This document shows positions 12,301 through 34,591 of a stretch of DNA of 53,868 nucleotides, in pieces. The DNA lies in the IMG/VR virus record IMGVR_UViG_3300022200_008215, positions 1 through 53,868 of that record; one strand, given 5' to 3'. A model generated the notes under the pieces. That model made no database searches, was not told where the DNA came from, and saw nothing but the letters and a program-made list of their open reading frames with translations. The DNA is from a virus. Numbering within the stretch: position 1 is the stretch's first letter; each line of letters opens with the position of its first letter. The translations under genes and the position numbers were made by a program.

Positions 12301-13878
12301 CTATACTGTTTCTAGATCTGATACGAAAATACGACCGTAAAATTCTGGTCTAAGCATTTTCTTCGCATATCTGGTCATAATTCCTTTGCGGGGAGTAAAA
12401 GTATCTGGATCGTATACTAGTGGTGTCATCATTAATGGCACGTAAGGAGCATACACAGCACCTGTTTCCAAGAATTGAGAACCTCTGTAACCCATAAGGA
12501 TTGTGTTTTCAGTCATGTAAGGGTTTTTGTATACTTTGTAACGTCCGTTTAATGCACCTACTTTTTGTACACCAAATGCAAAATCCATTTTGTCACCGTC
12601 AGTGTTTGCAGCATATCCAGGAATTGATTCTAGGATTGTAGCTACAGTTGGAGAACATACTAAGAAGTTAGCTCCGCCACGTAAAGTTTTTTGGTGGATT
12701 TTGTTAGATACTTTTTGGATTTTAGTTCCTAAAGTTTGGAACCATTGTCCTTGGGTATTATAGAAATCTGAACTAGCTGTTGACCATGTAGTCCCATTCC
12801 ATAATTTATTATTAAGGGCTGACCATCTTTCAGTTGTTACAGCATCTTGTATTAACATATCTAAGATCTCTAAGTCAATCTCCATAGAGATATATTCAGA
12901 TAAGATAGATGTTAATTCAGCTTCTGCATCAATAGAATGATAAGCGTTAAGATCCTGAGCAAATTCTGGGGTCCATTGTGCTTTTAATTTTCTTGTTTTA
13001 GCAACAATTGATTCAGAAGCAAGCTGTACATTAATTTCTGGTATCACGATTGAACCACCTGGATTATCTTCGAAGTCACCTCTTGTGTTATCAGTTGGCT
13101 GGTTGTGGTATAATACAGATCCTGTTATAGAGGCAACTACTGTCAAAGCACTTCCTGTTACTACGAAAGTAACTGTATCTCCTGATACTGTAGTAAGCTC
13201 TGGGTTTGAAGTTACATCTACAGATGATGAGTAAAGACGGAAAGCTCTAACTGCTTCGTGATCGAAAGAAGAGACAGATGCCATATTTACTGCTACTGTT
13301 TTGAATCCTGATAATAGTAAATCATCGTTGTATGCGATAGAGGCTGAGGTTGCAGCTGCTGTTACTTGTTGTACTGCGAGTGATCCTGAGTTGATTGAGT
13401 ATCCGAAAGCTCCTGCACCGTAAAGGCCGCCAGAAACTTCTTCATCAACAGTCATCTTATCATTAGCAGTAGATACGTTACCGTATAAATTACTGTTAAG
13501 ATCTTTGGTACGTCCTCCAGTACCATATTTAAAATCTAAATAGAATACTAGTCCTGAAGGTAGATTCATTGGCTGTACAGATACGAAATCTTTAGCAGCA
13601 ATTTGAGCGAATACCTTACGCACTAGTGGTAGAGCTACTCCTGCCCACTGCTCACCTTGACCAGCGGAAAAACTACCTCCTCCTACGTTAGTACTTGATT
13701 GTTCTGATACAATCTGTTTTGCTTGATTCTCAAGAATCATAGCCATGTTGTTTCTTTCATTCTCATTAGAGAGTCCCTCTAATAAGCCTGTTTTAGTCCA
13801 CTTCCCAGCAAGTCTAGCTGAATCAGCTTGTAGAGACTTGTAGTTATTTGCACCTTCCAATAATTGATTTAATTCCAT
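12301..13878 (-). CDS. 23: Major capsid protein (gp23)
   Basis: A 525-residue T4-type major head protein. The N-terminus MELNQLLEG, then TKTGLLEGL (about 28-36) and NNMAMILENQAKQIV (about 43-57), is the pattern of gp23 precursors in T4-like phages. The core has the VFYLDFKYG, VAKTRKLKAQWTPEFAQDLNA (first 20 residues VAKTRKLKAQWTPEFAQDLN) and FLVCSPTVATIL elements. T4 gp23 loses its first 65 residues to the gp21 protease at an LxE-type site. Here (I/L)LE sites lie at residues 6-8, 32-34 and 49-51. It follows gp22 by 27 bp and ends before a UUCG terminator. The leader has no Shine-Dalgarno site but an A-run (AAAAAAACCACAC). Confidence 0.95.
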   Translation of the reverse strand: MELNQLLEGANNYKSLQADSARLAGKWTKTGLLEGLSNENERNNMAMILENQAKQIVSEQSSTNVGGGSFSAGQGEQWAGVALPLVRKVFAQIAAKDFVSVQPMNLPSGLVFYLDFKYGTGGRTKDLNSNLYGNVSTANDKMTVDEEVSGGLYGAGAFGYSINSGSLAVQQVTAAATSASIAYNDDLLLSGFKTVAVNMASVSSFDHEAVRAFRLYSSSVDVTSNPELTTVSGDTVTFVVTGSALTVVASITGSVLYHNQPTDNTRGDFEDNPGGSIVIPEINVQLASESIVAKTRKLKAQWTPEFAQDLNAYHSIDAEAELTSILSEYISMEIDLEILDMLIQDAVTTERWSALNNKLWNGTTWSTASSDFYNTQGQWFQTLGTKIQKVSNKIHQKTLRGGANFLVCSPTVATILESIPGYAANTDGDKMDFAFGVQKVGALNGRYKVYKNPYMTENTILMGYRGSQFLETGAVYAPYVPLMMTPLVYDPDTFTPRKGIMTRYAKKMLRPEFYGRIFVSDLETV

Positions 13879-15881: not shown

Positions 15882-16460
15882 CTATGCTCTTAATATTTCG
15901 TTGATTATTGAATTGATTTTTGTGTACTTATTTTCAGGGAGTTTTCCTTCGTTTAAGGATACTGGGTTCATGAAAGCTCCCTGTGTGGAAGGATTGGAGA
16001 CGAAATCCCAGCAGACTAATTCAAAGTCTTGCTGTACCTCTAATGTTCCTTCGTTTGTTTGTTGTACTGATCCTGTACCCCTAGAAGAGATTCCTATAGT
16101 ATGTCCTGCTTTTATAATTTCTTTGACAATATTTCCTACAGGTGTATTGAGTAGTTCAATTCTTCCTTTTAGCTCATCACCATCCCACCACAGGTCTTTT
16201 ACTACGTGGGAAGCATTTTTTAAAGATACTACAGCTGATTCCGGATGATCTAATTCTCCAAAAGCATTTCCATTTTTTACGAACTCATTCATATACTTCT
16301 TACACTCTCTTTCAAGCAAGGTCTTGTCGTATACTCGTCCGTTTTGGTTTTTAGCTCCTGCTCTTTGTAAAACTCCTTCTACTTCGTATACCCCCGGCCT
16401 TTCTTTAGACTCCCTGAGTATTGATTTAAATGGTGTTATTTCTACTAATAGGTTGTTCAT
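15882..16460 (-). CDS. 21: Prohead maturation protease (gp21)
   Basis: A 192-residue peptidase of the T4 gp21 type. Conserved blocks are RAGAKNQNGRVYDKTLLE (33-50), FGELDHPE (67-74) with the catalytic His72, GISSRGTGSV (123-132) with the catalytic Ser125/126, and WDFVSNPS (151-158). T4 gp21 cuts head proteins after (L/I)xE. I use the ATG at 16460, which falls 2 bp after the stop of the preceding gene; an upstream extension to 16547 would add 29 residues not seen in the family. It begins MNNLLVE and has SILRE, SLNEG and IINEI sites, so it may process itself as T4 gp21 does. It is the likely processor of all proposed cargo proteins. Confidence 0.92.
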   Translation of the reverse strand: MNNLLVEITPFKSILRESKERPGVYEVEGVLQRAGAKNQNGRVYDKTLLERECKKYMNEFVKNGNAFGELDHPESAVVSLKNASHVVKDLWWDGDELKGRIELLNTPVGNIVKEIIKAGHTIGISSRGTGSVQQTNEGTLEVQQDFELVCWDFVSNPSTQGAFMNPVSLNEGKLPENKYTKINSIINEILRA

Positions 16461-16461
16461 C

Positions 16462-17748
16462 TTAATTTTTTCTTTTAGTATATTTTGATTTCTTACCTTT
16501 ATTCTCATTAACCTTATACATAGAATTACCAGCTTGTGTAGGATCAATACCTAATTTTTCCAATTCTTCAGGAGATATTCTCTTAGACTTGGGAAGTTCT
16601 ATTGTCATATATTTACTTAATACTGGTTGTAAGTCTTTTTTAAATGCTACTGAAACGGCTGGAGCCATAAAGGAGCCAATATTTGCATAAATTGCTTCTA
16701 TTCCTTGTCTAGCATCTAAATGAGCTTTTTCTATTTTAGCAATATGTTCTGCTAATTCTGTAGCTCCTTTTCTAATACGTGCAGCTAAGTCTTCGTTATC
16801 TACGTTTTCGTAGTTAATAAACGATTCTAAGTTTTCTGCTTTAGCTTCTAGTAAGACTCTTTTTTCTTCTGTTAAAATTCCTCTGATTAATTTTTTAAAG
16901 CTCTCTTTTAAAGAGTTTTTAATTGCATTATCCCTAGCAGCTAGGTAATCGTTAGAGTCTATATCTCCGTCTTTATCTAAGTCTCTACCTTTCTTTTCTT
17001 CTAATCCCGCTTCGTCTAAGAAACTCTCATCTATTTCTTTTAGTTGATTTTTTAAGTAGTTAACTAGATCTGCTTTTGCAAAAGTAACCATTTCTGGTTC
17101 AGTCATAGGTCCGTTTTTCCATTCATTCCAAACTGCTTGGAGGTGTTTTACTACCTTATCAAGTTCGGGTCCCATAGATTCTACATACCCTCCTGTTTCG
17201 TAATCATTTTCTGTTACTACTTTACCACCTTTTATTTTAGCTCTTCTACCTTCTTGTAAAGCTTTTTTAACCAACTTATGGAGTGTTTCCCTTAATTCAG
17301 CTTTTTTCATTCCGTTAAAAGTATCTATTTCTTTTCCTTTTTTAGCTTCAACATACTTATCATGCTTATCAACATTTTTTGATTCTCCTGAAAGTAGGTT
17401 TAAGTAAAAGTTGAGATCTTTAGATAAGTTCTTAACTACTTTAGTTTTGGCTTTTTCTAATTCCTCATCGTTGGGCATCTCTAACGGTATGTTAATACCT
17501 TGTACTTGTAATTCGTAATCGACACCTCTCGATACTGCTTCTTCAGGAAATGAATCTTCAGATTTCATAGTCTCTTTTTTCTTAGTCTCATGAATCATTG
17601 ATCTATTCTTAAGAATAGTTACAGTATCCTCAAATCCATTGAAGTTACTTATTAGGTTAGGTAGCTCTAATCTAGCATCTCTAACAAACTGGGATTTAGA
17701 AAATTTGTTTTCTAAAATTGCGTTATATTTTTCTTGTAGTGTTCTCAT
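16462..17748 (-). CDS. Head-assembly-region protein with EF-hand-like loop
   Basis: A 428-residue helical protein between portal and gp21. It starts MRTLQEKYNAILEN, another (I/L)xE leader. An EF-hand or dockerin-like calcium loop, DLDKDGDIDSND (256-267), has Asp at positions 256, 258, 260, 262 and 264. Possible protease sites are VTEN (178-181), ILTEE (291-295) and VLLEA (298-302). Residues 300-380 resemble the small structural domain ESFINYENVDNEDLAARI. I recall similar proteins in this location in marine T4-like phages, unnamed. Overlaps the preceding 87-residue gene by 26 bp. A core or internal head protein that may be cut into pieces is a reasonable guess. Confidence 0.6.
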   Translation of the reverse strand: MRTLQEKYNAILENKFSKSQFVRDARLELPNLISNFNGFEDTVTILKNRSMIHETKKKETMKSEDSFPEEAVSRGVDYELQVQGINIPLEMPNDEELEKAKTKVVKNLSKDLNFYLNLLSGESKNVDKHDKYVEAKKGKEIDTFNGMKKAELRETLHKLVKKALQEGRRAKIKGGKVVTENDYETGGYVESMGPELDKVVKHLQAVWNEWKNGPMTEPEMVTFAKADLVNYLKNQLKEIDESFLDEAGLEEKKGRDLDKDGDIDSNDYLAARDNAIKNSLKESFKKLIRGILTEEKRVLLEAKAENLESFINYENVDNEDLAARIRKGATELAEHIAKIEKAHLDARQGIEAIYANIGSFMAPAVSVAFKKDLQPVLSKYMTIELPKSKRISPEELEKLGIDPTQAGNSMYKVNENKGKKSKYTKRKN

Positions 17749-22554: not shown

Positions 22555-23772
22555 TTAGTAGTTAAGTTTTAATGTAAGTATTCCGTTGGCAATCCTCTTT
22601 ACAGTCAACCTACTTCTATCCTCTTCTTTCCGCATATCTAATATGACCGTTTTTCCTCTATCGTATATCATAAGATAGTCTATACCTTGCAGCCCTTTAC
22701 TTTTTATTTCGTTAAGATTTTTCTTTAGTGCAGCTGATCCTCCTACTACCCATGGATGTTCCATTAACTTCCTTAGTTCAAACTCTTGCTTCTTTCCTAA
22801 TTCTGGTGAGGTTTCTGAGGATATTATCATTCCTTGCTGGTCAACTTTTAGTGTATATTCTTGATCTTTCTTCACTAGGTACTTCTTCCCTGCTATTTTC
22901 ACCTCTACGTACTCTTTACCTATACTTTTATCATCTAACGGGAAATTATCAAGGAGTCTGGTAAGTTCGTCTAAGTACATTTCAGGTATAGATGTAAGCT
23001 TCTCTACTCCCGGCAGTATGAACCTAAATTCAGGTACTTTGTTAAACGGTGCTACTTGGTTCCTAAATGTTTCGTAGTTTTTCAAGAAAATACTGCCTAG
23101 TGTACTGCCTCCAGTTGCAAGTGATATTTCGTTTCCTGATGAAAAGTCTTTTACTTCTAGTACTTTTCCGTTACTGTCTGTTATATCTTTCTCATTAGCT
23201 CCTCCGATACGTGCTCCTTTTATCGAAACTAACGGTAACAGTTCTCCCTTTCCCCCTTTTGGAATTTTATAATCATGTAAAAGTTCATAAAAAGCTTCCA
23301 TATATACCTTTATATCTTTTATAAACTCCTCAATATTGGATGCTCTCCTGTAATTATCATTTTGCTTTACCAAGTTAATCTCTCCATCACTTACTCCTGC
23401 TCTTGATAGAACTTTTTCAACTTCTTCTTCTTCTAGAACCTTCTTGTCTACTGCATTTATATTAACATACTTTGTAGCCGCCTTAGACTTACCTTTTCCG
23501 GAGCCAACTACTTTGTACAGTTCTACGGAAGGGTTAGGTTCACCTGTTTCTCTGTTTACGTCTTTCGCTCTAACGTACACGTTATCCTCACCTTCCACTC
23601 TTTCATAATCTCCATGGTCTTGTGAAATAACCTCTTCTTCTAACTTTACGCCAAACTCGGTATAAATCTCTTTAAGTATTTTTGAGTCTTCAGCGTTCAT
23701 TATATCCGGGTACCCTTTCTCGCACCTGTAAGCCCATTCCTGTACTATTTTATCGATTACGTCTGTTTTCAA
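22555..23772 (-). CDS. Unknown protein with PD-(D/E)xK-like motif
   Basis: A 405-residue protein that starts with TTG at 23772. The N-terminus (VIDKIVQEWAYRCEKGYPDI) is a helix of the EWxYRxxxGxPD type that I associate with uncharacterised proteins of T4-like marine phages. Residues about 178-216 read SIKGARIGGANEKDI then GKVLEVKDF, followed by a Gly/Ser-rich loop. The order D...E-x-K (EKDI, then EVK) is what a PD-(D/E)xK nuclease core would show, but the rest of that fold is not clear to me. It stands between a class-2 motif (22 nt upstream) and a terminator, so it may be a separate transcript. Function is unassigned; nuclease-like is a guess. Confidence 0.55.
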   Translation of the reverse strand: MKTDVIDKIVQEWAYRCEKGYPDIMNAEDSKILKEIYTEFGVKLEEEVISQDHGDYERVEGEDNVYVRAKDVNRETGEPNPSVELYKVVGSGKGKSKAATKYVNINAVDKKVLEEEEVEKVLSRAGVSDGEINLVKQNDNYRRASNIEEFIKDIKVYMEAFYELLHDYKIPKGGKGELLPLVSIKGARIGGANEKDITDSNGKVLEVKDFSSGNEISLATGGSTLGSIFLKNYETFRNQVAPFNKVPEFRFILPGVEKLTSIPEMYLDELTRLLDNFPLDDKSIGKEYVEVKIAGKKYLVKKDQEYTLKVDQQGMIISSETSPELGKKQEFELRKLMEHPWVVGGSAALKKNLNEIKSKGLQGIDYLMIYDRGKTVILDMRKEEDRSRLTVKRIANGILTLKLNY

Positions 23773-23791
23773 AGTTCTGTTATTTTAAATA

Positions 23792-23813
23792 GACCTAAAT
23801 ATACGAAATATAT
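23792..23813 (-). promoter_or_regulatory. Class-2 upstream motif (before 405-aa gene)
   Basis: Minus strand reads ATATATTTCGTATATTTAGG followed by TC, ending about 20 nt before the TTG start at 23772. It shares TATATTTAGGTC with the copy at 31589-31610. Confidence 0.4.
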
Positions 23814-23846
23814 ATTTAATAGCCAACTATTCTATCTCTCCGTACT

Positions 23847-24080
23847 CTATTCTAAGTTTGTATTTAACTCGTCTGTAAATAGTTTATAAGTATGCCTACC
23901 GTACTCATCTCTTAGAACTATTGCTACTGCTTTTGCAAAGTCTCCGTAACTCATACTGTCGTCAATACTAACTATTGCGCTGTTTATTTTAGCTGCTAGT
24001 TCTAGTACTTTTCTTGCCTCTGATGGCTTGTTTCCAAAGGGTAATTCTTCTCCCTCGTTTAAAATATCTATAAGTTTCAT
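23847..24080 (-). CDS. Small protein with capsid-targeting-like leader
   Basis: A 77-residue protein. The first nine residues, MKLIDILNE, followed by Gly, form an amphipathic leader ending in LNE, the same design as at 33831, 34175 and 10339. The rest is a small mixed alpha/beta domain (ARKVLELAAKINSAIVSIDD, then YGDFAKAVAIVL and a Tyr/Leu-rich end). No enzyme motif is visible. It follows the 205-residue gene after 5 bp and shares the same operon. If the leader is a targeting peptide cut by gp21, the mature product would be about 68 residues and carried in the head. Confidence 0.55.
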   Translation of the reverse strand: MKLIDILNEGEELPFGNKPSEARKVLELAAKINSAIVSIDDSMSYGDFAKAVAIVLRDEYGRHTYKLFTDELNTNLE

Positions 24081-24085
24081 ATATA

Positions 24086-24703
24086 CTATGCTTCTGGTTC
24101 TTCTCCTGCTTCAAAATCTATTTCTTCTCCTCCTAAATCAGCTCCTCCTGCTTCTTCTCCACCCTCTGGTGCTTCTGCTCCTGGCTCTGCAAATGCTGCA
24201 TCTTCTCCTCCTGGAAAATCTCCTGCTCCTCCTCCGGCTCCGGAACCTGTCTCTCCTTCTGCTCCAGGCTCTCCCTCTAACCCTGCTCCCGTTAAGGGCG
24301 CTTCTTGATATAGAACTCCTAATCTATCTAGAGCTTGTTGAAATTCACTAATCTTCCCTAATGCATAATTCTTTCCTTGGATTTGTGCATCGAAAGTCTT
24401 TCCTGTCCACTTAAGAGAAAAATCCTGCCCATTAGAGAGGTTGATTCTAAATGAAGTTGGTCGTGGTGATATCCAATCAACAGACTTAACGAACTCCTTG
24501 AAATCCTGTGTCATTAATTTAACTAGAGTTGCTTTTAGCGTTGGAAATTTTTCTAACATCGTATCCGTAGCATCTTCTAAAACTGTCTCCGGACCTGCAG
24601 TATCATCTCCTGTAAGGTCTTCTGGTGCTGGTTCTTTATCCTGTTCTAAAAGAACTTCGATGTATGCTTGTTCTATTAGTCTTTTGAGTTCGTTTATTCT
24701 CAT
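24086..24703 (-). CDS. Protein with (I/L)xE leader and Gly/Ala/Glu-rich tail
   Basis: A 205-residue protein in three parts. Residues 1-21 are an amphipathic helix (MRINELKRLIEQAYIEVLLE) with sites at LIE and LLE. Residues about 45-135 are a compact alpha/beta domain (WISPRPTSFRINLSNGQDF, then LKWTGKTFDAQIQGKNYALG). Residues 136-205 are a low-complexity Gly/Ala/Glu/Pro tail with an acidic end. The low-complexity tail raises local GC and gives antisense open frames with no meaning. It lies 3 bp after the 718-residue gene. No family recognised; a head-packaged protein is the favoured guess because of the leader. Confidence 0.55.
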   Translation of the reverse strand: MRINELKRLIEQAYIEVLLEQDKEPAPEDLTGDDTAGPETVLEDATDTMLEKFPTLKATLVKLMTQDFKEFVKSVDWISPRPTSFRINLSNGQDFSLKWTGKTFDAQIQGKNYALGKISEFQQALDRLGVLYQEAPLTGAGLEGEPGAEGETGSGAGGGAGDFPGGEDAAFAEPGAEAPEGGEEAGGADLGGEEIDFEAGEEPEA

Positions 24704-24706
24704 CTT

Positions 24707-26863
24707 TTACTTATTTTTGCAATGCTTTGGGTTACTTTTAGAAAGGTAAGGTTTTTTACATTCCGTTGATTTCTTGTGAACTCTTCCACATCTTCCACAA
24801 CAGGTTGCTTTTTCCTCGTTTAACTTCTGTTCTTTTTTTGAATCTCCTTCTAATAATTCTCCTCCTTCATAGGAAACTACTGTATTATCTGAATCATACC
24901 AATCTTCGACTCTATACCCACCATTAGGTAGTTTATTTACATGCTGTACATATCCTTGTTCGCTCTCTTTCCTAGCTAATTCTTTCATTTTACTTAAACT
25001 GTCTGAACTCTCTTCCTTAATTTCTTTATTTCTTTCTAATTTAACATCACCACTTGTAGTTAAAATCATTGATGCAGAGGTAGCACCATTTCCTTTATCA
25101 TATGATACAGAAACAAAATTTTCTACTGTTTTTGTTTTTGATTGTTTATTTTCTGCAAATAAGTCAAGATTTGTATCTACTACCTCTATATCATTTCCAC
25201 CAAAATCTTCTAATGCATCGTAGGCTGTTTCTTCTGAACTAAAGTAATAACTATCTGACCCGTTGTATATTACTTCTTTATAATATTTGTCATCTAAGAT
25301 CATTATAGCTTTTCTAGCATCTCTTACAGCTACCTTAATATAGTATACTCCTTTAGGGGCTTCGTTAATATTTCCAAGGTCTAACTTTATTCCTATTTTC
25401 TTTGCTGCTTTAAGAACTCCTGGTCTCAACCTGTCTTGATCAGACCTAGAAGCTTTTTTATATATATCAAATAAGGTAAGGTATCTCTGTCTTGGAGTCT
25501 CTTCACCAATTTCTGCTTCATTTATTTTTTTAGGTTTTTTCTCGGCTTTCAACATAGCTGTCATTTTTTTAATTTTTAGCTGTTGGTCCATTGGAAGTTG
25601 AGCTAATCTATCTTCTTCTTTTGCTTTAGCCCATTCTTCTTCAGACATACCCTCAGACATTTCTCTTTGAAGTTGATTAATGTAAGCATTAGCATCTCCT
25701 TCACTACCTTTAATGGTTTTTACTTTTTTACCATTTTTAAAAATATCGTATACACCTTTACTTAGGTATTTTTTAGTGTAAGTAGGTTTTTCTGGTTTGC
25801 TTTTCTCATATCCTTTTGGATCGTGAAACATTCCAATTTCATCTAAACTTACTATAGAATCGATTTCAGGTTCTTTAAGTTCAAAATCAAGGTAATGTTT
25901 AGCACCTACTATTGCAGTTTTAGCATTAGTAATTTTAGCCTGCCACCAAGCCGGAAAATCTACTTCACCAACACCCTCAAACTGATCTACCATTTTATAA
26001 AGTTCCATAGCATATTTTCCAATACGATATAGGTCTGCTTTTAACATATGTGGTTCGTTGTCTTCGTGTCCTAAATCTAGATCTTCATTTAAACCATAAG
26101 AACTAGCATTATCTATGAATCCTTGAAAGAATCCTTTTCTATATGCTTGGTGGTCTGGTTTGTTTTTAAATCTACCTTTAATTTTTTCAAATGCTTCTTC
26201 ACCAGCTTCATACCCCATTTCTTCAATATCAGCTAAGCCAATATTTTCTTCATATTCATCAGCTCCTACTTCGATATCTTTCGAATATTCCTGTTCGTTT
26301 AAAGAATTAAAGTATTTAACAAGATTATTTTTTACTAAATCTTTGTGAACTAGCGGCTCTCCAGATGGCTTAATTCCTACTTCGCCAATTTCTTTATCAA
26401 ATGAATCATCAACTAGGTGTAGAATACCTCCAGTTATGTAAAATGAAAACTCATCTTCAAAGTTGTTTTTGTACTCTATATAAATAGTAAATGAGTTAGA
26501 CATTATATCTTTTACTGTACCTCTTGCTACTTCATCTCCGACTTCTCTCAAAGCACTTACTAGTGTCTTTGCAATTTCCAGGGCTATAACTCTTGTCTCT
26601 TCGACTGAATATTCAATTTCCTGTTGCTCGCTTTTTAGCTTAACAGTCACATCAGGATTGTCTTTAGAGAATTCAGCTGCTTTTTTTTCATCTTCAAATT
26701 CTACAGCTTCTAGCTTTCTTTCTAAAGATTCTTTAAGTAGTTCTAATTTTTTTTTAGATATTAGCATACTTTGTTGTGAAAGTTTTCCTAACCCTCTGTC
26801 TTTAATTATATTTAGTGCAATTTTGCATTTTGATACACGTTCTTGAATTTCTTGATAAGTCAT
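24707..26863 (-). CDS. Large modular protein, possible gp21-processed polyprotein
   Basis: A 718-residue protein built of unlike modules joined by (I/L)NE or LLE motifs: LNE at 188-190, LNE at 258-260, INE|A at 447-450, INE|A at 499-502, LLE|G at 670-673 and LNE|E at 681-684. After 260 comes DLDLGHEDNEPHMLKADLYR (261-280) and a domain with WWQAKI, a block I recall as widespread in T4-like marine phages. The C-terminal 34 residues are a Cys-rich zinc-ribbon-like unit (CCGRCG at 688-693, C702, HC at 714-715). The N-terminal 115 residues are helical. The motifs match the T4 gp21 cleavage rule, so maturation into several peptides is proposed. Start chosen at ATG 26863, 26 nt after a TATTTATA motif. 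Function unknown. Confidence 0.65.
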   Translation of the reverse strand: MTYQEIQERVSKCKIALNIIKDRGLGKLSQQSMLISKKKLELLKESLERKLEAVEFEDEKKAAEFSKDNPDVTVKLKSEQQEIEYSVEETRVIALEIAKTLVSALREVGDEVARGTVKDIMSNSFTIYIEYKNNFEDEFSFYITGGILHLVDDSFDKEIGEVGIKPSGEPLVHKDLVKNNLVKYFNSLNEQEYSKDIEVGADEYEENIGLADIEEMGYEAGEEAFEKIKGRFKNKPDHQAYRKGFFQGFIDNASSYGLNEDLDLGHEDNEPHMLKADLYRIGKYAMELYKMVDQFEGVGEVDFPAWWQAKITNAKTAIVGAKHYLDFELKEPEIDSIVSLDEIGMFHDPKGYEKSKPEKPTYTKKYLSKGVYDIFKNGKKVKTIKGSEGDANAYINQLQREMSEGMSEEEWAKAKEEDRLAQLPMDQQLKIKKMTAMLKAEKKPKKINEAEIGEETPRQRYLTLFDIYKKASRSDQDRLRPGVLKAAKKIGIKLDLGNINEAPKGVYYIKVAVRDARKAIMILDDKYYKEVIYNGSDSYYFSSEETAYDALEDFGGNDIEVVDTNLDLFAENKQSKTKTVENFVSVSYDKGNGATSASMILTTSGDVKLERNKEIKEESSDSLSKMKELARKESEQGYVQHVNKLPNGGYRVEDWYDSDNTVVSYEGGELLEGDSKKEQKLNEEKATCCGRCGRVHKKSTECKKPYLSKSNPKHCKNK

Positions 26864-26889
26864 TGGTTTTGATATTTAAAAGCTATAAT

Positions 26890-26897
26890 TATAAATA
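26890..26897 (-). promoter_or_regulatory. Candidate late promoter motif TATTTATA (before 718-aa gene)
   Basis: Minus strand reads TATATTTATAATT, 26 nt before the ATG at 26863. Confidence 0.4.
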
Positions 26898-26900
26898 TAC

Positions 26901-27479
26901 CTATTTTATGTGTTCTGATAGGTGTGTTATATACTGCTTGATATTTTTTAATATTTTCTTTTTTTCTGAGTTGTTAGATTTCCAATCTTCTATATCCCCC
27001 TGTTCTGTAATAAAAGTATCTTGTGAATTAACTGTCTCTAGAGCCCACTGTTCTATATCTTTTACAAAGAGTTTCATACTGCCTTGCATCATTCTTTGTT
27101 CATACTGCTCAAATAGTCCTGCTTTCCTTAAGTCGGCTTCGTACTCTACAGTACATGGATCAAAACAAAACCCATGAATTTTGTACATTTTTTGAGCTAA
27201 GTGATGTTTCATCGGACCTCCGCAGTTAGGGCACCTTAGTGGTATACGAACAGCTTTTTTAGCTGCATCTAATTTTGTAACATTTTGTTTAATTCCGTTT
27301 TTAATTGTCCAATTTTTACCTGATTCTTCCCAAATATCACCCTCCTTGTATTTGCCTATTATTTTTTTGTAACCTGTTTGAGCTTTTGTTTTAGCTGTAT
27401 AGTCTTTATTAACTATATTCCTGACTCTCTGTACATCTCTTTGTTTAAATTCTTTCTTTAGTAACGATTCCTTACTCAT
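26901..27479 (-). CDS. Zinc-ribbon-like phage protein, unknown function
   Basis: A 192-residue basic protein. Residues about 80-115 hold CPNCGGPMKHHLAQKMYKIH then GFCFDPCTVEYEADL, giving Cys at two CxxC-like positions (CPNC and C-x3-C) that could bind zinc. The first 60 residues are Lys-rich and probably nucleic-acid contacting; the last 50 are acidic then basic helix. The pattern is one I associate with unnamed proteins of T4-like marine phages. It overlaps the HAD gene stop by 8 bp, so it is co-translated with it. Function not known; a late transcription or DNA-binding factor would fit but has no direct support. Confidence 0.6.
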   Translation of the reverse strand: MSKESLLKKEFKQRDVQRVRNIVNKDYTAKTKAQTGYKKIIGKYKEGDIWEESGKNWTIKNGIKQNVTKLDAAKKAVRIPLRCPNCGGPMKHHLAQKMYKIHGFCFDPCTVEYEADLRKAGLFEQYEQRMMQGSMKLFVKDIEQWALETVNSQDTFITEQGDIEDWKSNNSEKKKILKNIKQYITHLSEHIK

Positions 27480-28005
27480 ACTTTAATTCTTTTAATTTTT
27501 CTATAACATAATCTACATTTCCGTCTTTACATCTTATAGCAATTCCGCCTTTCGATATCCATTCTTCAATATTTGATTTTTTATCATCTATTAGAATTGA
27601 ATTCTCGTTAGCATATCTCTGCTTATCTTTTGAGTAAGCAAATATCACTTTTGGAGATGAAGGTATATTTTGTCTAACCCATAGGTTTTTTCCTAGTCTT
27701 GAGTTATTATGTCTTGAAGGAGATGTCAAAATTTGCGGGCTGTAAGGTTCTATAAAATTCCACAGTCTCTGTCCTTGAGGCATCCAGGGCATTTCTGACC
27801 AGAATTTGATACCTACTTCTCCGTCTATGATATTCCAAAAAGCTGCGGATCCAAATTCATCTTCATACTCTTTTGGATTGCTGTATCCTGTGTAGTGCTC
27901 AAACCTTGTTTCGAAGTCAGTTAATACTCCGTCCATATCACAGTAGATATTATACGGAGGCATAGTTTCTGATTTTTCTAATAACAAATCTTTTAGTTTT
28001 CCCAT
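27472..28005 (-). CDS. HAD-family phosphatase, 5'(3')-deoxyribonucleotidase-like
   Basis: A 177-residue HAD-fold hydrolase. Motif I is DMDGVLTDF (23-31) with nucleophile D23 and acid D25, motif II is probably LTSPS (93-97), and ILIDDKKSNIEEW holds the motif IV acidic pair. The overall plan matches small nucleotide phosphatases of the NT5C type, which dephosphorylate (deoxy)nucleoside monophosphates. A ten-residue extension, MGKLKDLLLE, precedes the domain and ends in LLE; ordinary NT5C-like enzymes start close to motif I. That leader is of the capsid-targeting type proposed here, so the enzyme may be carried in the virion. Overlaps the next gene by 8 bp and follows the 881-residue gene by 8 bp. 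Confidence 0.8.
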   Translation of the reverse strand: MGKLKDLLLEKSETMPPYNIYCDMDGVLTDFETRFEHYTGYSNPKEYEDEFGSAAFWNIIDGEVGIKFWSEMPWMPQGQRLWNFIEPYSPQILTSPSRHNNSRLGKNLWVRQNIPSSPKVIFAYSKDKQRYANENSILIDDKKSNIEEWISKGGIAIRCKDGNVDYVIEKLKELKYE

Positions 28006-28013
28006 ACCTTTTT

Positions 28014-30659
28014 TTACAGCAGTTGTCTTATTCCTAATGCTGGTAGTCTTTTACGCCATAGGGTAAGTATTTTTTCTTTTTGACTTGGTGTTATATCTTG
28101 TGAGTCTATATACCTGTTCACTACATCAGCAAAGGGTTTCTTTTCTTTTTTAGCCCTTAAGAGTAGTCCTTGTAAATTTGCATCTACCTCTTTTTCAAGC
28201 TCTAAATATTGATTAGCTCTTGATTTTTTTGATTTTATCCAAGCTCTTCTTTCAAGATCGTCTGCCATTCCTTTATTGGGGTTAGCAGTATCGCTTCCTA
28301 TGTTATGTGTTAGGTGTTCTATTTCATGTCTAACAATATCCTTTAATGTCATAGAAATCTCTTCCCATATTTCTGGTAGGAGTTGTTCATCTACTTCTAC
28401 ATCTATTCTAATGAAATCTCCTTCGTTGTCTGTACCTGCTCCTGTTGTCTCAATAACATCCATTGTCCCCGTATCGAATGTTAATTCTATTGTAGCTTCT
28501 ACATCGAAATTTGCTCCTAAACCTTCATAGTTGTCTTTATATTGAAACCCGTCTTCTCCTTCATCTACGGCTTGTTTCCATGCTTTGAAGATATTTGAGG
28601 ATATTGTATTTGTAAGTTTATCGTATTTACCTTCTGCCATCACTTCTTTTTTTTTACCATTTTTAATCTCATCTTCCCAGTTCCTGAAAGTTATATTCCC
28701 TTCTAAGTATGCTTCTTTTTCTATCTCTATTAAGTTACTATCTTCATTTGTATTAGTAGTTCCTACGGAACCTAATCTACCTTCTAAATTCTGTTTATGA
28801 TGAATCATCTCATGTGTAAAAGATCTCATTACATCTTTAGGGTGTCTTCCTTCTACGTAGAGAACTACTTCTTTCTTATTAGGGTCGTAGAATGCTGTAC
28901 GTCCAAAGAAATCACTTGATTCTGCTATATCTCTCCTAATTTTGACTTCAGGTAAGGGAGTTACTTTCATCTTTTGATCTATCATATACTCTAAAATAGA
29001 GCCCATATATGGTGTGTAATCAAAGCCAACTCTTTCTCCTTCTTTTTTATTCCGAACTGTTATACTATCTCCATTGAATACTATATCGTAGTACTCGTCC
29101 CCGAGTAGGGTAAGTAGTTTCTTATATACGGTAACTAGCATTGCTCTATCTTTTGACGCAATAACGCTTTTTGGAGCTATTGCTGTTCCGGAAGAACCTT
29201 CTTTAACTAATTGATTAGTGTTAAAAAGTTCGTGTAGTGTTTTATCTAAAGCTTCTTGCATTTGTATCTCTTTTTCTGATGGTGCACGCATTGCTGCTAT
29301 GTTTATACTTCTTTCTTTATCTGAGTTGTTTATTTCCTGTGGTGTCCATTCCCCGCTTTTTAAGTACCTGACAGAATTTCTTATTGAGTTAGCAGAAAAT
29401 TTACTGTCCTCTTCTCCTTCTCTTGGTAACTCTAATATTTCAACTGTTGGATATTTTTCTTTATTTTTTATAAAATAGTCAAACCTTTTTGCTTCTTCGG
29501 GAAGAGTTCCTGTTATGATTTTAGAATAGCTATTTTGATTATCATCTACAAAAGTATAAATGTCTCTTATGGGGGTTACTTCTGATAGGATTATATCAAC
29601 CGGTATCGGAAGGTATTTGGCATAAATTTCCCAAATACTCTTAGATTGTTCAGCGCTAATTCTTACTCCTTCTCGTACTTTAGGTCCTATAAATATAACC
29701 AACCTGTCTACTTTATCTGCTAAAAATTTTGCATTATTAAAATGAGCTTTGTGAGGTGGTTTAAATCCTCCGGCGTATAGTCCTACTGTTTTACCTTGCT
29801 CATCCTCTAGTATAGTATTTACTGTCTGTAGTGCTTTTTCTTTCCCTGCTCCTTTAGGTGTCCCCACTTCCCCTGATTTTACTGATACCATACTATTAAA
29901 AACACCTTTAATTCTTTCTTTTGATCTTGGATTTTTTACTTTAGATTTAATATCTTGTAGTAAATCTTCGAATGTTCCGTCTATGTTATAGTTTTTAAAA
30001 AGTTCTCTTATTAGTCCCCAATTTGTTGTACTCCATAGATCTTCTCTAGCAACTGTTTTGAAATCTTTTAATTTTACTTTCCTTAAAGTTAGTTTATTTG
30101 AACTTAAATTGAACTCTAATTCTTCATCTGGTGTAAGCTGTGGTACATCATTTATGCTTAATCTCTTGAGCAGTTCAACTGGGTTTTCTTCTAGTAGAAT
30201 AACTTTTACTAGTCCTAATAACAGTCCTTGTTTTTCGGCTGGTAGATCTAAGAAGCTATTTTTAAATGCATGTTCTTCGTCTGATAGTGATATGATATTA
30301 TCTACTTGTATGTATTTATCTTGCTGACCTGTAATTGGAAAGAGGATAGTAATTATTTCTCCAGAGTTGTAGTATTTTTTACCTGAATATTTTTCACTCT
30401 TAAAAGGAACTATAACGCTATCAGGTTCCGAAGTTACTGTTTTAATTATTCTCTGTTTAACTTCTTTCTTATCTTCTCCTTCGAATTGAACAATTAAGTC
30501 GAGGTCTCCAAAATCCGGCTTACTTCCTGCTTTAACACTTCCAGATAGTGATGCTTTTTTGAATCCTGGTATCTTTTCTAGAACATCTTTTACGTACTTA
30601 TCGAAAGTACGTTTAACATCTTTCTTTTCTATTCTCTGACCTCCGGCTACACCTGACAT
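28014..30659 (-). CDS. Multi-enzyme protein: nucleotidyltransferase, NMNAT-like adenylyltransferase, two HExxH domains
   Basis: An 881-residue protein. Residues 1-270 hold a pol-beta-type nucleotidyltransferase, GS (40-41) with D52-x-D54 and a third Asp near 120. Residues 291-435 are a cytidylyltransferase/NMNAT-like domain with GGFKPPHKAH (297-306) and SANSIR (422-427), close to the signature of NMN or pantetheine-phosphate adenylyltransferases. Residues about 490-660 carry a zinc-protease-like HEMIH (616-620). Residues 677-881 carry a second HEIEH (778-782). The boundaries coincide with ILE|D (283-286), LVKE|G (484-488) and VMAE|G (673-677), which look like gp21 sites, most convincingly the first. 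A phage NMNAT could rebuild NAD+ against NAD-depleting defences, but substrate is not proven. Domains intact; polyprotein status inferred. Confidence 0.75.
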   Translation of the reverse strand: MSGVAGGQRIEKKDVKRTFDKYVKDVLEKIPGFKKASLSGSVKAGSKPDFGDLDLIVQFEGEDKKEVKQRIIKTVTSEPDSVIVPFKSEKYSGKKYYNSGEIITILFPITGQQDKYIQVDNIISLSDEEHAFKNSFLDLPAEKQGLLLGLVKVILLEENPVELLKRLSINDVPQLTPDEELEFNLSSNKLTLRKVKLKDFKTVAREDLWSTTNWGLIRELFKNYNIDGTFEDLLQDIKSKVKNPRSKERIKGVFNSMVSVKSGEVGTPKGAGKEKALQTVNTILEDEQGKTVGLYAGGFKPPHKAHFNNAKFLADKVDRLVIFIGPKVREGVRISAEQSKSIWEIYAKYLPIPVDIILSEVTPIRDIYTFVDDNQNSYSKIITGTLPEEAKRFDYFIKNKEKYPTVEILELPREGEEDSKFSANSIRNSVRYLKSGEWTPQEINNSDKERSINIAAMRAPSEKEIQMQEALDKTLHELFNTNQLVKEGSSGTAIAPKSVIASKDRAMLVTVYKKLLTLLGDEYYDIVFNGDSITVRNKKEGERVGFDYTPYMGSILEYMIDQKMKVTPLPEVKIRRDIAESSDFFGRTAFYDPNKKEVVLYVEGRHPKDVMRSFTHEMIHHKQNLEGRLGSVGTTNTNEDSNLIEIEKEAYLEGNITFRNWEDEIKNGKKKEVMAEGKYDKLTNTISSNIFKAWKQAVDEGEDGFQYKDNYEGLGANFDVEATIELTFDTGTMDVIETTGAGTDNEGDFIRIDVEVDEQLLPEIWEEISMTLKDIVRHEIEHLTHNIGSDTANPNKGMADDLERRAWIKSKKSRANQYLELEKEVDANLQGLLLRAKKEKKPFADVVNRYIDSQDITPSQKEKILTLWRKRLPALGIRQLL

Positions 30660-30660
30660 T

Positions 30661-31572
30661 TTATACTGTTTTATATTTAGTTAAATTCGATTCATCCGGT
30701 AGGAATTTACCTTTAAGTGTTAATCTGTCTTGGTTTTCTATCCAATACGATTGTAAATCTTCGGGAATATCTGCTCTAGTACTGTCTAATATTTTTAAGT
30801 ACCTGTCGTATACACCATTCAAATCCTCTGTAGATAATCCCGCTTCTAATGTCTCTATTAATTTAAAGTAATCTCCAGCAGTCTCTTTATCTAACTTAAT
30901 ATTATATAACTTATTTAAAAGTTCTATAGCCTGTTGTGGACTATTAGCTACTATCTCTTGAGTTTCTTTATCTTTAACTCCATAATTGTGTGAAAAGGTA
31001 TATCCCTTATGTGAAAATAGAGCAACAATAAGTTGAGTTCTATGTAATCCTTTTACATTTCCTGAATAGGTAGTGGAGTGGTATGCAAAGGAAAGCCAGT
31101 CTACGTCTCCCACGTTTATATCTATCTGTACGTTATCACCTACTTCTTCTTTATTTTCATCAAACTGTGGAAATAAGAGGAATAATGCTCCTGCTCCTGA
31201 GCCTTTCACATCGGCTAAGATATCGGTATTACTTTCCTCAATTTTTTGAGCTACAGAAACTATAACAGCTCTCTTCATTAGTTGATCATCAGACGATGTT
31301 CTAGCTCGTTTTTTGAAACCATCGAATAGTTTATTAATATGGTCTTGATCTAATCCCCAATCGTTAATATCGTCAAAAGATTTTCCTGATAGGGCTAAGT
31401 CAATATCCCCTGAGTAGTCTTTTTTCCCTACAGATCCTAAAGTTTTCATCTCTCTAAAAAATGGTTCTGCTTTAGGAAAAATTGCTTTAAATTGCTTGAA
31501 AAATTCAAACAATGTAGGTTTTATATTCTCTTTTTTAATTGAAGCAGTATTATTAAAAACGTTACCTCCCAT
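30661..31572 (-). CDS. Pol-beta-type nucleotidyltransferase
   Basis: A 303-residue protein with the nucleotidyltransferase signature: TLGSVGKKDYSGDIDLALSG (44-63), that is GS followed by D56-x-D58, and a third acidic strand VQIDINVGDVDW near residue 149. A His-rich segment, FAYHSTTYSGNVKGLHR, follows. The next gene starts with a second domain of the same superfamily, so this is a tandem pair. Members transfer nucleotides to tRNA, antibiotics or proteins, and the MNT group includes toxin-antitoxin proteins; the substrate here is unknown. Upstream lies a class-2 motif ending 19 nt before the ATG and, further up, a TATTTATA motif. No (I/L)xE leader at the start. Confidence 0.75.
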   Translation of the reverse strand: MGGNVFNNTASIKKENIKPTLFEFFKQFKAIFPKAEPFFREMKTLGSVGKKDYSGDIDLALSGKSFDDINDWGLDQDHINKLFDGFKKRARTSSDDQLMKRAVIVSVAQKIEESNTDILADVKGSGAGALFLLFPQFDENKEEVGDNVQIDINVGDVDWLSFAYHSTTYSGNVKGLHRTQLIVALFSHKGYTFSHNYGVKDKETQEIVANSPQQAIELLNKLYNIKLDKETAGDYFKLIETLEAGLSTEDLNGVYDRYLKILDSTRADIPEDLQSYWIENQDRLTLKGKFLPDESNLTKYKTV

Positions 31573-31588
31573 ACTAATTTATTTTATT

Positions 31589-31610
31589 GACCTAAATATA
31601 TGAATTTATT
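31589..31610 (-). promoter_or_regulatory. Class-2 upstream motif (before nucleotidyltransferase)
   Basis: Minus strand reads AATAAATTCATATATTTAGG then TC, ending about 17-19 nt before the ATG at 31572. It is the fullest copy of the motif and nearly identical to the one at 6696-6713, with the same spacing. Confidence 0.45.
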
Positions 31611-31633
31611 TTAGATCTACCAACTATTTTATT

Positions 31634-31641
31634 TATAAATA
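31634..31641 (-). promoter_or_regulatory. TATTTATA motif (upstream of nucleotidyltransferase)
   Basis: Minus strand reads ACTATTTATAAAT, 61 nt before the ATG at 31572. The sequence is nearly palindromic here (TATTTATAAATA). The nucleotidyltransferase unit may thus have both motif classes. Confidence 0.3.
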
Positions 31642-31644
31642 GTA

Positions 31645-32427
31645 TTAAAGTTTAATGGAAGTAGGGTAAGACTTATATTTAGGTTTAACAGATGGGTTTT
31701 CTAATAAGTATAGTTTCTGTATTAGCTTAAATAATTCAAAATTTTCTTCAATTTCATCTATTACTTTAATCTGCCATCCTGCCCCTTGTATAACTTCCTT
31801 TTGTTTTGAAGGTCCCCTAGTACTTGCTTTTAACCAAATAATTCCTGTCCTTTGTATTTTAATTCCTTTCATCTCTTCTAGTGCTCTTGCATAAGCGGAT
31901 AATTGAAGATCATAGGATTTATGTAAGCTGTTGGATGTTTTTATATCCAGCAACCAAACTTCGCCGTGCATTTTAACAACTAGATCCGCTGTTCCTGCAT
32001 ACTTATGGGTATCAGAGTATACGAAGTCTTCTGCTGATATTAATTCTGGTTTATTTTCTTTCCAGAATTCTGTAAATTTAAGGATCATGCTCCAGACTAA
32101 TTCGCTGTACTTAGCTTTGCCGTAATCATCCATCCAGTGTACTTCTTCTCCTAGTACTAACCTTTCGGCAGCTTCGTGTACCTGGGTCCCTTCTTTACCT
32201 GCTTTCTGCATAATAATATCAGAATTATGTCCTACATCTTTTAGCCAAGTTTCAAAGAATCTATTTTTTGGCATATACTGTAGTATCGTCGTAACTGATG
32301 GATAGTAAGTATCTTCTCTTCTTTTGTAAACTCTGTTATCTAAGAAGTTGATTTGTTGTAATTTCCCATCAAAAGTTAACCGGTCTTTGGCATGTTCTTT
32401 TAAAATGTCTGTACCTTGTTTGATCAT
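31645..32427 (-). CDS. RecB/Cas4-like PD-(D/E)xK nuclease
   Basis: A 260-residue exonuclease-like protein. Motifs in order are GTQVH (80-84), GTADLVV (145-151, with D148), LLDIKTS (159-165, with D161 and K163) and LQLSAYA (174-180). This is the RecB-type nuclease set: metal-binding His, Asp, Asp and catalytic Lys, then the QxxxY-like helix. It suggests a DNA end-processing or recombination role. The ATG overlaps the stop of the primase gene (ATGA), so the two are translated together as a replication pair within a mostly structural region. No helicase domain is attached. Confidence 0.88.
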   Translation of the reverse strand: MIKQGTDILKEHAKDRLTFDGKLQQINFLDNRVYKRREDTYYPSVTTILQYMPKNRFFETWLKDVGHNSDIIMQKAGKEGTQVHEAAERLVLGEEVHWMDDYGKAKYSELVWSMILKFTEFWKENKPELISAEDFVYSDTHKYAGTADLVVKMHGEVWLLDIKTSNSLHKSYDLQLSAYARALEEMKGIKIQRTGIIWLKASTRGPSKQKEVIQGAGWQIKVIDEIEENFELFKLIQKLYLLENPSVKPKYKSYPTSIKL

Positions 32428-33350
32428 AGGGCATTAATTTTGTGCACCATTAGACCTGTAAAGTCTAATTCTTTTGCGGATTGAATAAGTTTAGTAAAAT
32501 TTCTAAACCCTACTTCACTTGGGTCTTTTTCTTTTAAGTCAATTAGAAAGACCCTTTTTCCTGAATTTAATAAATTTTCTGCTATCTCTAATGCATCTTT
32601 TTGTGCATCTTGATCCAGAGCTATATAAATGTCATCTACTTTTGACGTTATTATTCTTTTCATTAGAGAGTGGGAAAGACTTTTTCCTAGTATGGGAACA
32701 GCGTTTCTCCGTATTGCCATTGCATCAAATACACCTTCACATAGTATTATCGGTTTATCCCAATTGATCATGTTTTCGAAGAATACTATGTCTTTAGAAG
32801 TTTCTGGGTTTTTGTATTTAAAATACGCTCTTTCGTAAGTTCTTCCAATAAAATAATTGAGCCTACCCGACTCAGAATAACTTGGTATAATGATTCGACC
32901 TCCATAGTCTCCATCTGTCGTATATCCAATAGAGTATTTAATAAAATCATTGTCGGTAAGTCCTCGTTCATATAAGTACTTTCTTATCTTATTGGCAGTG
33001 ATAGATTTTGTTGTAGCTGAATGTAGAGGTTGGTATTCTTTAGGAAGCTCTGTGATTTCATCATTACTATATTCGTATTTTTTACCTTTCTTTATGTATT
33101 TGAGAACCTCCTGTGCTTCTCCTTTAGGTATTTTTAATTGCTTTAGTAGCGAGTATATAGTAGTTCCTCTGGATTTACATACCCAGCACTCCCAGTGGTT
33201 TTTACCTTCTTCATTAGTTGCTAGATTAATTTCTAACTTAGGTTTTCGGTGATTGCAGAAAGGACAATTAAAAGCGTAGTTATCTCTAGCTCTTTTATGA
33301 CTTTTTCCCAATACGTTTTCTATAGATCCTAATAAAAAAGTATACTCCAT
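32424..33350 (-). CDS. DNA primase (DnaG type, gp61-like role)
   Basis: A 308-residue primase. The N-terminal zinc ribbon has CPFC (29-32) and CWVC (55-58). The TOPRIM domain has GRIIIPSY (151-158), CEGVFDAM (204-211, with E205) and ALDQDAQKDA (244-253, with D246 and D248). This is the phage primase plan, which makes RNA primers for lagging-strand synthesis together with a helicase (not in the window). It starts a replication pair with the RecB-like nuclease and follows a strong terminator at 33378-33401, implying a separate promoter in the 48-bp gap (33351-33398). An AT-rich CTTATATTAAG stretch there is the only candidate. Confidence 0.92.
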   Translation of the reverse strand: MEYTFLLGSIENVLGKSHKRARDNYAFNCPFCNHRKPKLEINLATNEEGKNHWECWVCKSRGTTIYSLLKQLKIPKGEAQEVLKYIKKGKKYEYSNDEITELPKEYQPLHSATTKSITANKIRKYLYERGLTDNDFIKYSIGYTTDGDYGGRIIIPSYSESGRLNYFIGRTYERAYFKYKNPETSKDIVFFENMINWDKPIILCEGVFDAMAIRRNAVPILGKSLSHSLMKRIITSKVDDIYIALDQDAQKDALEIAENLLNSGKRVFLIDLKEKDPSEVGFRNFTKLIQSAKELDFTGLMVHKINAL

Positions 33351-33377
33351 ACTTAACAGTTATTATCTTAATATAAG

Positions 33378-33401
33378 AAAAAAGTTGCAATTAAGCAACT
33401 T
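33378..33401 (-). terminator. Rho-independent terminator before primase
   Basis: Minus strand: AAGTTGC-TTAATT-GCAACTT followed by TTTTC. The stem overlaps the stop codon of the kinase-like gene. Strong candidate. Confidence 0.88.
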
Positions 33402-33831
33402 ATACGTCTGTCATTTTTAATTTCCCAGATTTAGGGTTGATCATAAAATTATCCGGCCTTATATCTAATTCATCAGAAGGTATTCCTAATCTTTTTGCTT
33501 CCGCTTCTAAGGCATCTATAAAGTCTTCAGGAATTTCTCCTTTAAATTCCCCCATAACGTCCATTGTAATTACTCCTAACTTATCCCCTAACCTACTAAC
33601 ATCGTAAATGAAGACAAAATTATTTGTTTTTTTTCCTTTAAGCAGCTCAGCATGATCTAATTCAACTTCGTCAGTTGTTACCTTTACCGCTTTACCGTCA
33701 AGTAGATATACAGAACCGTAATCCCCTGAGCCTAAGTATTTTCCTCCTCTATCTTGTATTTTATCTATCTGTTTATTAAAAGCAGGATCATATTCTATCG
33801 GACCTTCTAATATTATTTGCGATAGTTTCAC
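33400..33831 (-). CDS. Miniature protein-kinase-like protein with capsid-targeting-like leader
   Basis: A 143-residue protein. It starts MKLSQIILE then Gly, an (I/L)xE leader. The body carries protein kinase landmarks in order: a glycine-rich loop GSGDYGSVY (34-42), a VAIK-type AVKVT with K50, a hinge-like VITMDVMGE (87-95), a catalytic-loop-like LDIRPDNFMIN (122-132, with D123 and N128) and a terminal TD (141-142) where DFG would be. No activation loop or C-lobe follows; the protein ends there. It may be a minimal kinase, a kinase-derived binding module or a degenerate relative. Overlaps the 114-residue gene by 1 bp and ends in a terminator. The leader suggests packaging in the head and delivery into the host. 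Confidence 0.6.
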   Translation of the reverse strand: MKLSQIILEGPIEYDPAFNKQIDKIQDRGGKYLGSGDYGSVYLLDGKAVKVTTDEVELDHAELLKGKKTNNFVFIYDVSRLGDKLGVITMDVMGEFKGEIPEDFIDALEAEAKRLGIPSDELDIRPDNFMINPKSGKLKMTDV

Positions 33832-34568: not shown

Positions 34569-34591
34569 ATACCCCCTTTTACTGTCAATAC

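What the first reader, a model, noticed from the sequence alone, without database searches (positions are those of the whole stretch)
24707..26863. 718-residue modular protein with repeated (I/L)NE linkers: second candidate polyprotein
Seen: LNE at 188-190 and 258-260, INE|A at 447-450 and 499-502, LLE|G at 670-673, LNE|E at 681-684. These separate unlike modules: a helical part, the HEDNEPHMLKADLYR domain, an INEA-bounded domain and a Cys-rich end. The repeated asparagine at the middle position is not required for T4 gp21, so it may be a specificity of this phage's protease. SLNE|G and IINE|I also occur in gp21 itself and INE|Q in the 219-residue head-region protein.
Basis: partly seen in the sequence, partly recalled or inferred. 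Interest (0 to 1): 0.7.

Follow-up and report, generated by a model that had tools for sequence, protein, structure and literature searches.

The report
Phage head cargo polyprotein, shuffled modules
An aquatic T4-like phage encodes a 718-residue chain of interchangeable small protein modules whose joints look like cutting sites for the phage's own head protease, so the phage probably packs the chain into its head, cuts it up there and may inject the pieces into the bacterium.

Summary
All five (I/L)NE motifs and LLE are where stated; shuffling the protein gives a mean of 0.54 (I/L)NE and P=0.00014 for five. Related phages show what the motifs mark. The module after LNE258 recurs in 76 genes behind varied sequence; among 50 distinct upstream contexts the preceding residue is Glu in 48, with Leu/Ile/Val/Met at P3 in 40: the L/I-x-E rule of T4 gp21 (PMC9026906). 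Across 357 mosaic proteins, module boundaries lie at [ILVM]NE 2.4 times more often than chance (z 19.6); reversed and P3-altered motifs do not. Codon use at the motif is close to background, so selection acts on protein, not DNA. Neighbouring genes appear fused in relatives at such joints. AlphaFold puts most joints in low-confidence coil. A gp21-type protease lies 8 kb away. Best reading: a head-internal cargo polyprotein of the 'polyvalent protein' kind, cut in trans by the prohead protease. Asn at P2 is a preference shared by this phage group, not a requirement. Cleavage, packaging and injection are inferred. The cultured Flavobacterium phage immuto has a homologue and could test it.

The parts
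24707..26863 (-). 718-aa candidate cargo polyprotein
   Evidence: Single ORF, five (I/L)NE joints; shared only in pieces with other phages
26303..26863 (-). Module 1 (residues 1-187)
   Evidence: Homologous N-terminal part in L005 and immuto gp079; confident core in the model
26294..26302 (-). Joint SLNE|Q (188-190)
   Evidence: Conserved as ALNE|Q in L005; confidence falls from 82 to 39 right after it, but it lies in a predicted helix
26093..26293 (-). Module 2 (191-257)
   Evidence: Recurs in L003 directly after NMNE and in L075 without module 3
26084..26092 (-). Joint GLNE|D (258-260)
   Evidence: P1 Glu in 48 and aliphatic P3 in 40 of 50 distinct upstream contexts of the next module
25844..26083 (-). 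Module 3a (261-340), HEDNEPHMLKADLYR domain
   Evidence: Found in 76 genes at varying positions
25526..25843 (-). Module 3b (341-446)
   Evidence: Shared with L004 and partly L008; small beta region of higher confidence at about 361-400
25517..25525 (-). Joint KINE|A (447-449)
   Evidence: Low-confidence stretch between modules; module 4 follows EINE in L005
25370..25516 (-). Module 4 (450-498)
   Evidence: Two-helix domain, pLDDT 84-91; elsewhere in the order in L005, bounded by EINE and QLNE
25361..25369 (-). Joint NINE|A (499-501)
   Evidence: Module 5a is preceded by [ILM][ND]E in each of its seven contexts
25148..25360 (-). Module 5a (502-572)
   Evidence: Alpha/beta domain, pLDDT 86-96; recurs in L005, L016, L037, L053, L063, L067
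24857..25147 (-). Segment 573-669
   Evidence: No reliable relative found; low model confidence
24848..24856 (-). Possible joint LLE|G (670-672)
   Evidence: Fits L/I-x-E; low-confidence coil
24815..24823 (-). Joint KLNE|E (681-683)
   Evidence: Module 6 follows ALNE in immuto and LIKE in L005
24710..24814 (-). Module 6 (684-718), Cys-rich
   Evidence: C-terminal in L005, internal in immuto, N-terminal in L024
24086..24703 (-). Adjacent 205-aa gene
   Evidence: Lies next to the module 3a gene in the listed loci; fused to the end of the polyprotein in immuto
23847..24080 (-). 77-aa gene with N-terminal ILNE|G
   Evidence: First part of longer proteins in L003, L008, L020, followed by INE or LNE
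15882..16547 (-). gp21-type prohead protease, the proposed cutter
   Evidence: phrog_207, E 4.5e-55; 73% identical to immuto protease
12301..13878 (-). gp23-type major capsid protein, likely site IVSE|Q
   Evidence: phrog_138, E 7e-77; IVSE kept in immuto

Best explanation
The 718-aa protein is a head-internal cargo polyprotein of a T4-like aquatic phage. Six or more small modules are strung together with aliphatic-x-Glu sites at the joints, mostly (I/L)NE. It enters the prohead core, where the phage's gp21-like protease cuts it after each joint Glu. The separate modules stay in the head with the DNA and are probably ejected into the host early in infection, as T4 Alt and the IP proteins are. 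Because the modules are released, they can be gained, lost, reordered or encoded as separate genes, which explains the mosaic seen in relatives. Shown by sequence: the modules, their mobility and the motif at joints. Inferred: cleavage, packaging and injection.
For: Motif excess in the protein. Modules recur in other orders and proteins. P1 Glu in 48/50 and aliphatic P3 in 40/50 distinct contexts before module 3a; [ILM][ND]E in 7/7 before module 5a. Module boundaries lie at [ILVM]NE 352 times against 149 expected, z 19.6; KE, DE, EE, TE, SE, QE and AE are also raised; EN, ED, ES, EA, ND and [DSK]NE are not. P3 L>M>I>V, P1 Glu not Asp, P1' Ala/Ser favoured, as for T4 gp21 L/I-X-E (PMC9026906). 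Protein-level constraint. gp21-type protease in the window and in 17 of 26 contigs of relatives, which are fragments. In immuto, [LI]xE[AGSN] exceeds its reversed control only in the head/cargo block, 52 vs 27. Gene fusion at joints.
Against: No proteomic or biochemical evidence. LNE188 is in the last turns of a predicted helix. The full-length model is poor (mean pLDDT 52.6). Sequences are related, so z-scores overstate independence. In immuto the control [ILVM]EN is as frequent as [ILVM]NE in the head block. Two of the 50 contexts lack the Glu (L005, immuto). Packaging rests on gene position and analogy.
Confidence: 0.7

Rival explanations
1. An uncut polyvalent protein: packaged and injected as one chain, with the (I/L)NE joints as relics of fused genes that each began with a capsid-targeting start ending in xNE.
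For: Some polyvalent proteins, such as N4 virion RNA polymerase, are packaged unprocessed (PMC5512222). Several modules exist as genes whose start carries xNE, such as the 77-aa gene and the MLNE/MINE starts.
Against: Relics would decay, yet P1 and P3 persist while P2 and P4 vary freely, and modules also end on the motif.
Confidence: 0.15
2. A polyprotein cut not by gp21 but by the zincin-like metallopeptidase modules of the neighbouring 881-aa protein or its relatives, as proposed for polyvalent proteins.
For: The 881-aa neighbour has two HExxH-type stretches; such zincin modules occur in 45 ORFs of the loci. Iyer et al. propose zincin processing.
Against: The joint motif matches the known gp21 rule at P3 and P1, and the same rule fits the capsid and scaffold proteins. 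No specificity is known for these zincins.
Confidence: 0.06
3. Structural coincidence: aliphatic-Asn-Glu is a helix N-cap pattern that tends to occur where domains begin, and has nothing to do with proteolysis.
For: Asn, Asp, Ser and Thr are good N-cap residues and Glu is favoured just after; Asn is the strongest P2 residue.
Against: Asp in place of the Glu is not enriched (0.9; [ILVM]ND z -0.7), while Lys, Glu, Gln and Ala, poor N-caps, are enriched at P2 at boundaries. Modules also end exactly on the motif. Most sites here are in coil.
Confidence: 0.05
4. A DNA-level recombination or shuffling signal that happens to encode LNE.
For: Modules are exchanged and the motif lies at the exchange points.
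Against: Codons at the motif follow the background (Asn AAT 0.73 vs 0.72; Glu GAA 0.89 vs 0.88; Leu TTA 0.74 vs 0.61) and the flanking bases show no consensus. Variation at P2 changes the DNA but keeps aliphatic-x-Glu.
Confidence: 0.02

Closest known systems
T4 internal head proteins (IPI-III, Alt) and other gp21 substrates (gp22, gp67, gp68)
   Same: Encoded in a phage with gp21/gp23-type head genes; L/I-x-E sites; short N-terminal stretches ending in such a site are common in the same gene block. T4 scaffold proteins are cut several times.
   Different: T4 internal proteins are single cargo proteins with terminal propeptides; here many modules are strung together with a site at each joint. 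No sequence similarity to T4 IPs was found by PHROGs.
Polyvalent proteins (Iyer et al. 2017, PMC5512222)
   Same: Mosaic multidomain proteins near virion genes, with zincin, nucleotidyltransferase, ParB-like and possibly ADP-ribosyltransferase modules in neighbouring or related proteins.
   Different: The 718-aa protein itself has no recognised domain. Joints carry gp21-type sites; the published proposal is processing by zincins or by an assemblin-like peptidase in the same chain.
Flavobacterium phage vB_FspM_immuto gp079 (YP_010114604.1)
   Same: Syntenic homologue, 841 aa, modules 1, 3a and 6, with ELNE, KLNE, MMNE, DMNE, SVNE, SLNE and ALNE along the chain.
   Different: Different set and order of modules; the window's next gene (205 aa) is fused at its C-terminus. 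Annotated only as hypothetical protein.
Giant-phage head proteins cut by SPN3US gp245 (PMC10052503)
   Same: Head proteins cut after a short x-x-Glu motif by a gp21-related protease, some at several sites.
   Different: There the motif is A-x-E and the cuts mainly remove N-terminal propeptides rather than separating cargo modules.

Membership tests
Substrate of a gp21-type prohead protease | Phage encodes a gp21-type protease | tested here: met
   phrog_207, E 4.5e-55 in the window; 17 of 26 contigs of relatives, many of them fragments
Substrate of a gp21-type prohead protease | L/I-x-E sites at positions that separate mature parts | tested here: met
   Five (I/L)NE and one LLE; boundaries enriched in the motif across relatives
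Substrate of a gp21-type prohead protease | Cut at those sites in the prohead | not testable with these tools
   Needs virion N-terminomics or in vitro cleavage
Substrate of a gp21-type prohead protease | Sites accessible, not buried in a fold | tested here: inconclusive
   258, 447, 499, 670 and 681 at low or reduced confidence in coil; 188 at the end of a predicted helix
T4-type internal (IP) protein | N-terminal capsid-targeting sequence ending in a gp21 site | tested here: inconclusive
   718-aa protein starts MTYQEIQE with an I-x-E at 6-8; 10 of 14 genes of the block have such a site at 6-25 against 3.8 expected
T4-type internal (IP) protein | Found inside the mature head and ejected | not testable with these tools
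   No virion proteome found
T4-type internal (IP) protein | Sequence homology to T4 IPs or Alt | tested here: not met
   No significant PHROGs or Pfam match; it is therefore not filed as an IP family member
Polyvalent protein | Several unlike domains in one chain, in varying combinations | tested here: met
   Modules reordered and exchanged between phages
Polyvalent protein | Contains domains of the published polyvalent set | tested here: not met
   No recognised domain in the 718-aa protein; such domains appear only in neighbours and relatives
Polyvalent protein | Encoded near virion genes | tested here: met
   Between terminase/portal/protease/capsid and primase, syntenic in immuto

The most novel reading that the evidence does not exclude
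A whole group of aquatic T4-like phages carries its injected cargo as true polyproteins: chains of interchangeable effector modules joined by prohead-protease sites with an Asn-favouring P2 position, cut inside the head so that one gene delivers many separate proteins. New cargo can be added by inserting a module between two sites.
Probability: 0.6. Interest if true: 0.82.

Novelty: new variant of a known kind. Interest (0 to 1): 0.7.

Why it matters
Prohead proteases are known to trim head proteins and destroy scaffolds, and polyvalent proteins are known as mosaic injected proteins. If the protease also separates strings of cargo modules, it explains how such mosaics remain functional whatever their order. 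It also gives a sequence rule for splitting many unannotated viral proteins into their true functional units, some of them likely host-takeover or anti-defence factors. It can be tested in a cultured phage.

Tried and rejected
Domain annotation of the 718-aa protein by Pfam and PHROGs gave nothing significant. Foldseek against the PDB found no match below E 0.001 for either model; the best hits (Lrp/AsnC regulators, PmtCD basket domain, SPO1 Acb4) are not credible assignments. Separate scans for modules 1 and 4-6 gave no new phage beyond L005 and near-identical contigs. The cellular genome collection gave no relative. Several mixed-module alignments misplaced short modules and were not used. 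The iterated profile for module 3b drifted into another protein family and is not counted. DNA recombination signal rejected by codon use; helix N-cap judged unlikely. Literature: no paper found describing prohead-protease-processed cargo polyproteins, and no virion proteome located for immuto; the library is incomplete, so absence there is weak evidence of novelty.

Full report
What is in the sequence. The ORF at 24707-26863 on the minus strand encodes 718 residues. (I/L)NE occurs at 188, 258, 447, 499 and 681, and LLE at 670; 100,000 shuffles of the protein give a mean of 0.54 (I/L)NE and five or more in 0.014%. The window is a T4-like head/tail region. The gp21-type protease (phrog_207, E 4.5e-55) and gp23-type capsid protein (phrog_138, E 7e-77) lie at 15882-16547 and 12301-13878. 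The region is syntenic with the genome of the cultured Flavobacterium phage vB_FspM_immuto. The window itself is a 53.9-kb virus record.

The modules are real. One scan of IMG/VR gave 76 loci with relatives. Two contigs, essentially identical to the window, share the whole protein; the others share pieces. L005 is a 670-aa relative with the order M1 - M5a-like - M4 - M3a - M6 instead of M1 - M2 - M3 - M4 - M5 - M6. Module 2 occurs in L003 directly after NMNE, and in L075 without module 3. Module 6 is C-terminal here, internal in immuto and N-terminal in L024. Module 5a sits in other proteins of L016, L037, L053, L063 and L067. Neighbouring genes join in. The 205-aa gene that follows the polyprotein here is fused to its C-terminus in immuto. 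The 77-aa gene (MKLIDILNE|G...) is the first part of longer proteins in L003, L008 and L020, followed by INE or LNE.

The joints carry a protease-like motif. For module 3a, 50 distinct eight-residue upstream contexts have P1 Glu in 48 and P3 L/V/M/I in 40, with free P2 and P4. For module 5a, the residues before the module are [ILM][ND]E in all seven contexts seen. Without choosing modules by eye, I took interior ends of local alignments between non-redundant ORFs of the loci as boundaries. 352 of 2201 lie within 8 residues of [ILVM]NE, against 149 +/- 10 when boundaries are shifted at random within each protein. [ILVM]KE, DE, EE, TE, SE, QE and AE are also raised. The reversed motifs, [DSK]NE and [ILVM]ND are not. 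The ends peak on the motif itself, both where modules start and where they stop. Over 590 non-redundant ORFs [ILVM]NE is 2.7 times expectation and [ILVM]EN 1.05. P3 prefers L, M, I, V in that order; P1 accepts Glu but not Asp; P1' favours Ala and Ser and avoids Lys. This is the specificity of T4 gp21, which cuts C-terminal to L/I-X-E (PMC9026906), with Asn favoured at P2.

Location. In the complete immuto genome, [LI]xE[AGSN] exceeds its reversed control only in the head/cargo block (52 vs 27) and not in replication, baseplate or tail blocks (74/85, 13/12, 13/16). [ILVM]NE is 2.0 times expectation there and 1.25, 0.7 and 0.5 elsewhere; note that [ILVM]EN is also frequent in that block. In the window, head plus cargo genes have 20 [ILVM]NE against 8.9 expected, and the other two blocks 4 against 7.1. 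Ten of 14 genes in the cargo block have an [LI]xE at residues 6-25 (3.8 expected), as T4 internal proteins do; tail-fibre genes do not.

Structure. AlphaFold on residues 444-718 gives two confident domains: a two-helix domain (module 4) and a small alpha/beta domain (module 5a). INE447 lies before the first, INE499 in the lower-confidence gap between them, and LLE670 and LNE681 in low-confidence coil. The full-length model is poor overall (mean pLDDT 52.6) but shows a confident module 1 core that ends at LNE188; that site is in the last confident turns of a helix.

Interpretation. The best reading is a head-internal cargo polyprotein of the polyvalent-protein kind, cut by the prohead protease acting in trans. 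Other proteins of these phages support the cargo idea. The 881-aa neighbour combines nucleotidyltransferase-like, cytidylyltransferase-like and two zincin-like parts (by motif and weak Pfam matches). A 1337-aa protein in L073 strings a NadM-like module, DUF6934, a ParB-like stretch and a zincin together across nine [ILVM]NE sites. A protein in L066 has a weak ADP-ribosyltransferase match. Iyer et al. proposed that polyvalent proteins are processed by zincins or by an assemblin-like peptidase in the same chain. The joint motif here points instead to the separate gp21-type enzyme.

What remains inferred: cutting, packaging and injection. The 718-aa protein itself has no recognised domain, so the function of its modules is unknown beyond being probable cargo. 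The statistical tests use related sequences, so z-scores overstate independence; the variety of contexts around module 3a is the cleaner evidence. Asn at P2 is a preference of the group, not a rule of this one phage, and the capsid protein's likely site (IVSE|Q) lacks it.

Noticed in passing
window 28014-30659 (-): 881-aa neighbour looks like a polyvalent protein: nucleotidyltransferase-like start, a GGFKPP cytidylyltransferase/NadM-like part behind TILE, and two HExxH-type zincin-like stretches; 57% identical to an immuto protein over its whole length.
   Followed up: partly
window 22555-35146 (-): Ten of 14 genes in this block have an [LI]xE within residues 6-25 (3.8 expected), such as MKLSQIILE|G and MGKLKDLLLE|K, as if many small proteins, a HAD-type nucleotidase among them, carried capsid-targeting starts.
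   Followed up: partly
L073:756-4769: 1337-aa protein with nine [ILVM]NE (1.8 expected) stringing together NadM-like, DUF6934, ParB-like and zincin parts.
   Followed up: partly
L066:464-3892: 1142-aa protein with seven [ILVM]NE and a below-cutoff Tox-ART-HYD1 match (E 1.9e-4), a possible ADP-ribosyltransferase module like T4 Alt.
   Followed up: no
Proteins with module 3a in L003-L072, and window 16462-17748: About half (39 of 76) of module 3a genes have an EF-hand/dockerin-like D-x-D-x-DG loop upstream of the module, in interchangeable versions.
   Followed up: no
window 15882-16547 (-): The listed TTG start of the protease ORF overlaps the upstream gene; alignment with immuto suggests the real start is the internal ATG of MNNLLVEITPFK.
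   Followed up: no
immuto genome 35542-36093: A 183-aa ORF annotated as thymidylate kinase, far from the head block, has three [ILVM]NE (0.16 expected); unexplained.
   Followed up: no
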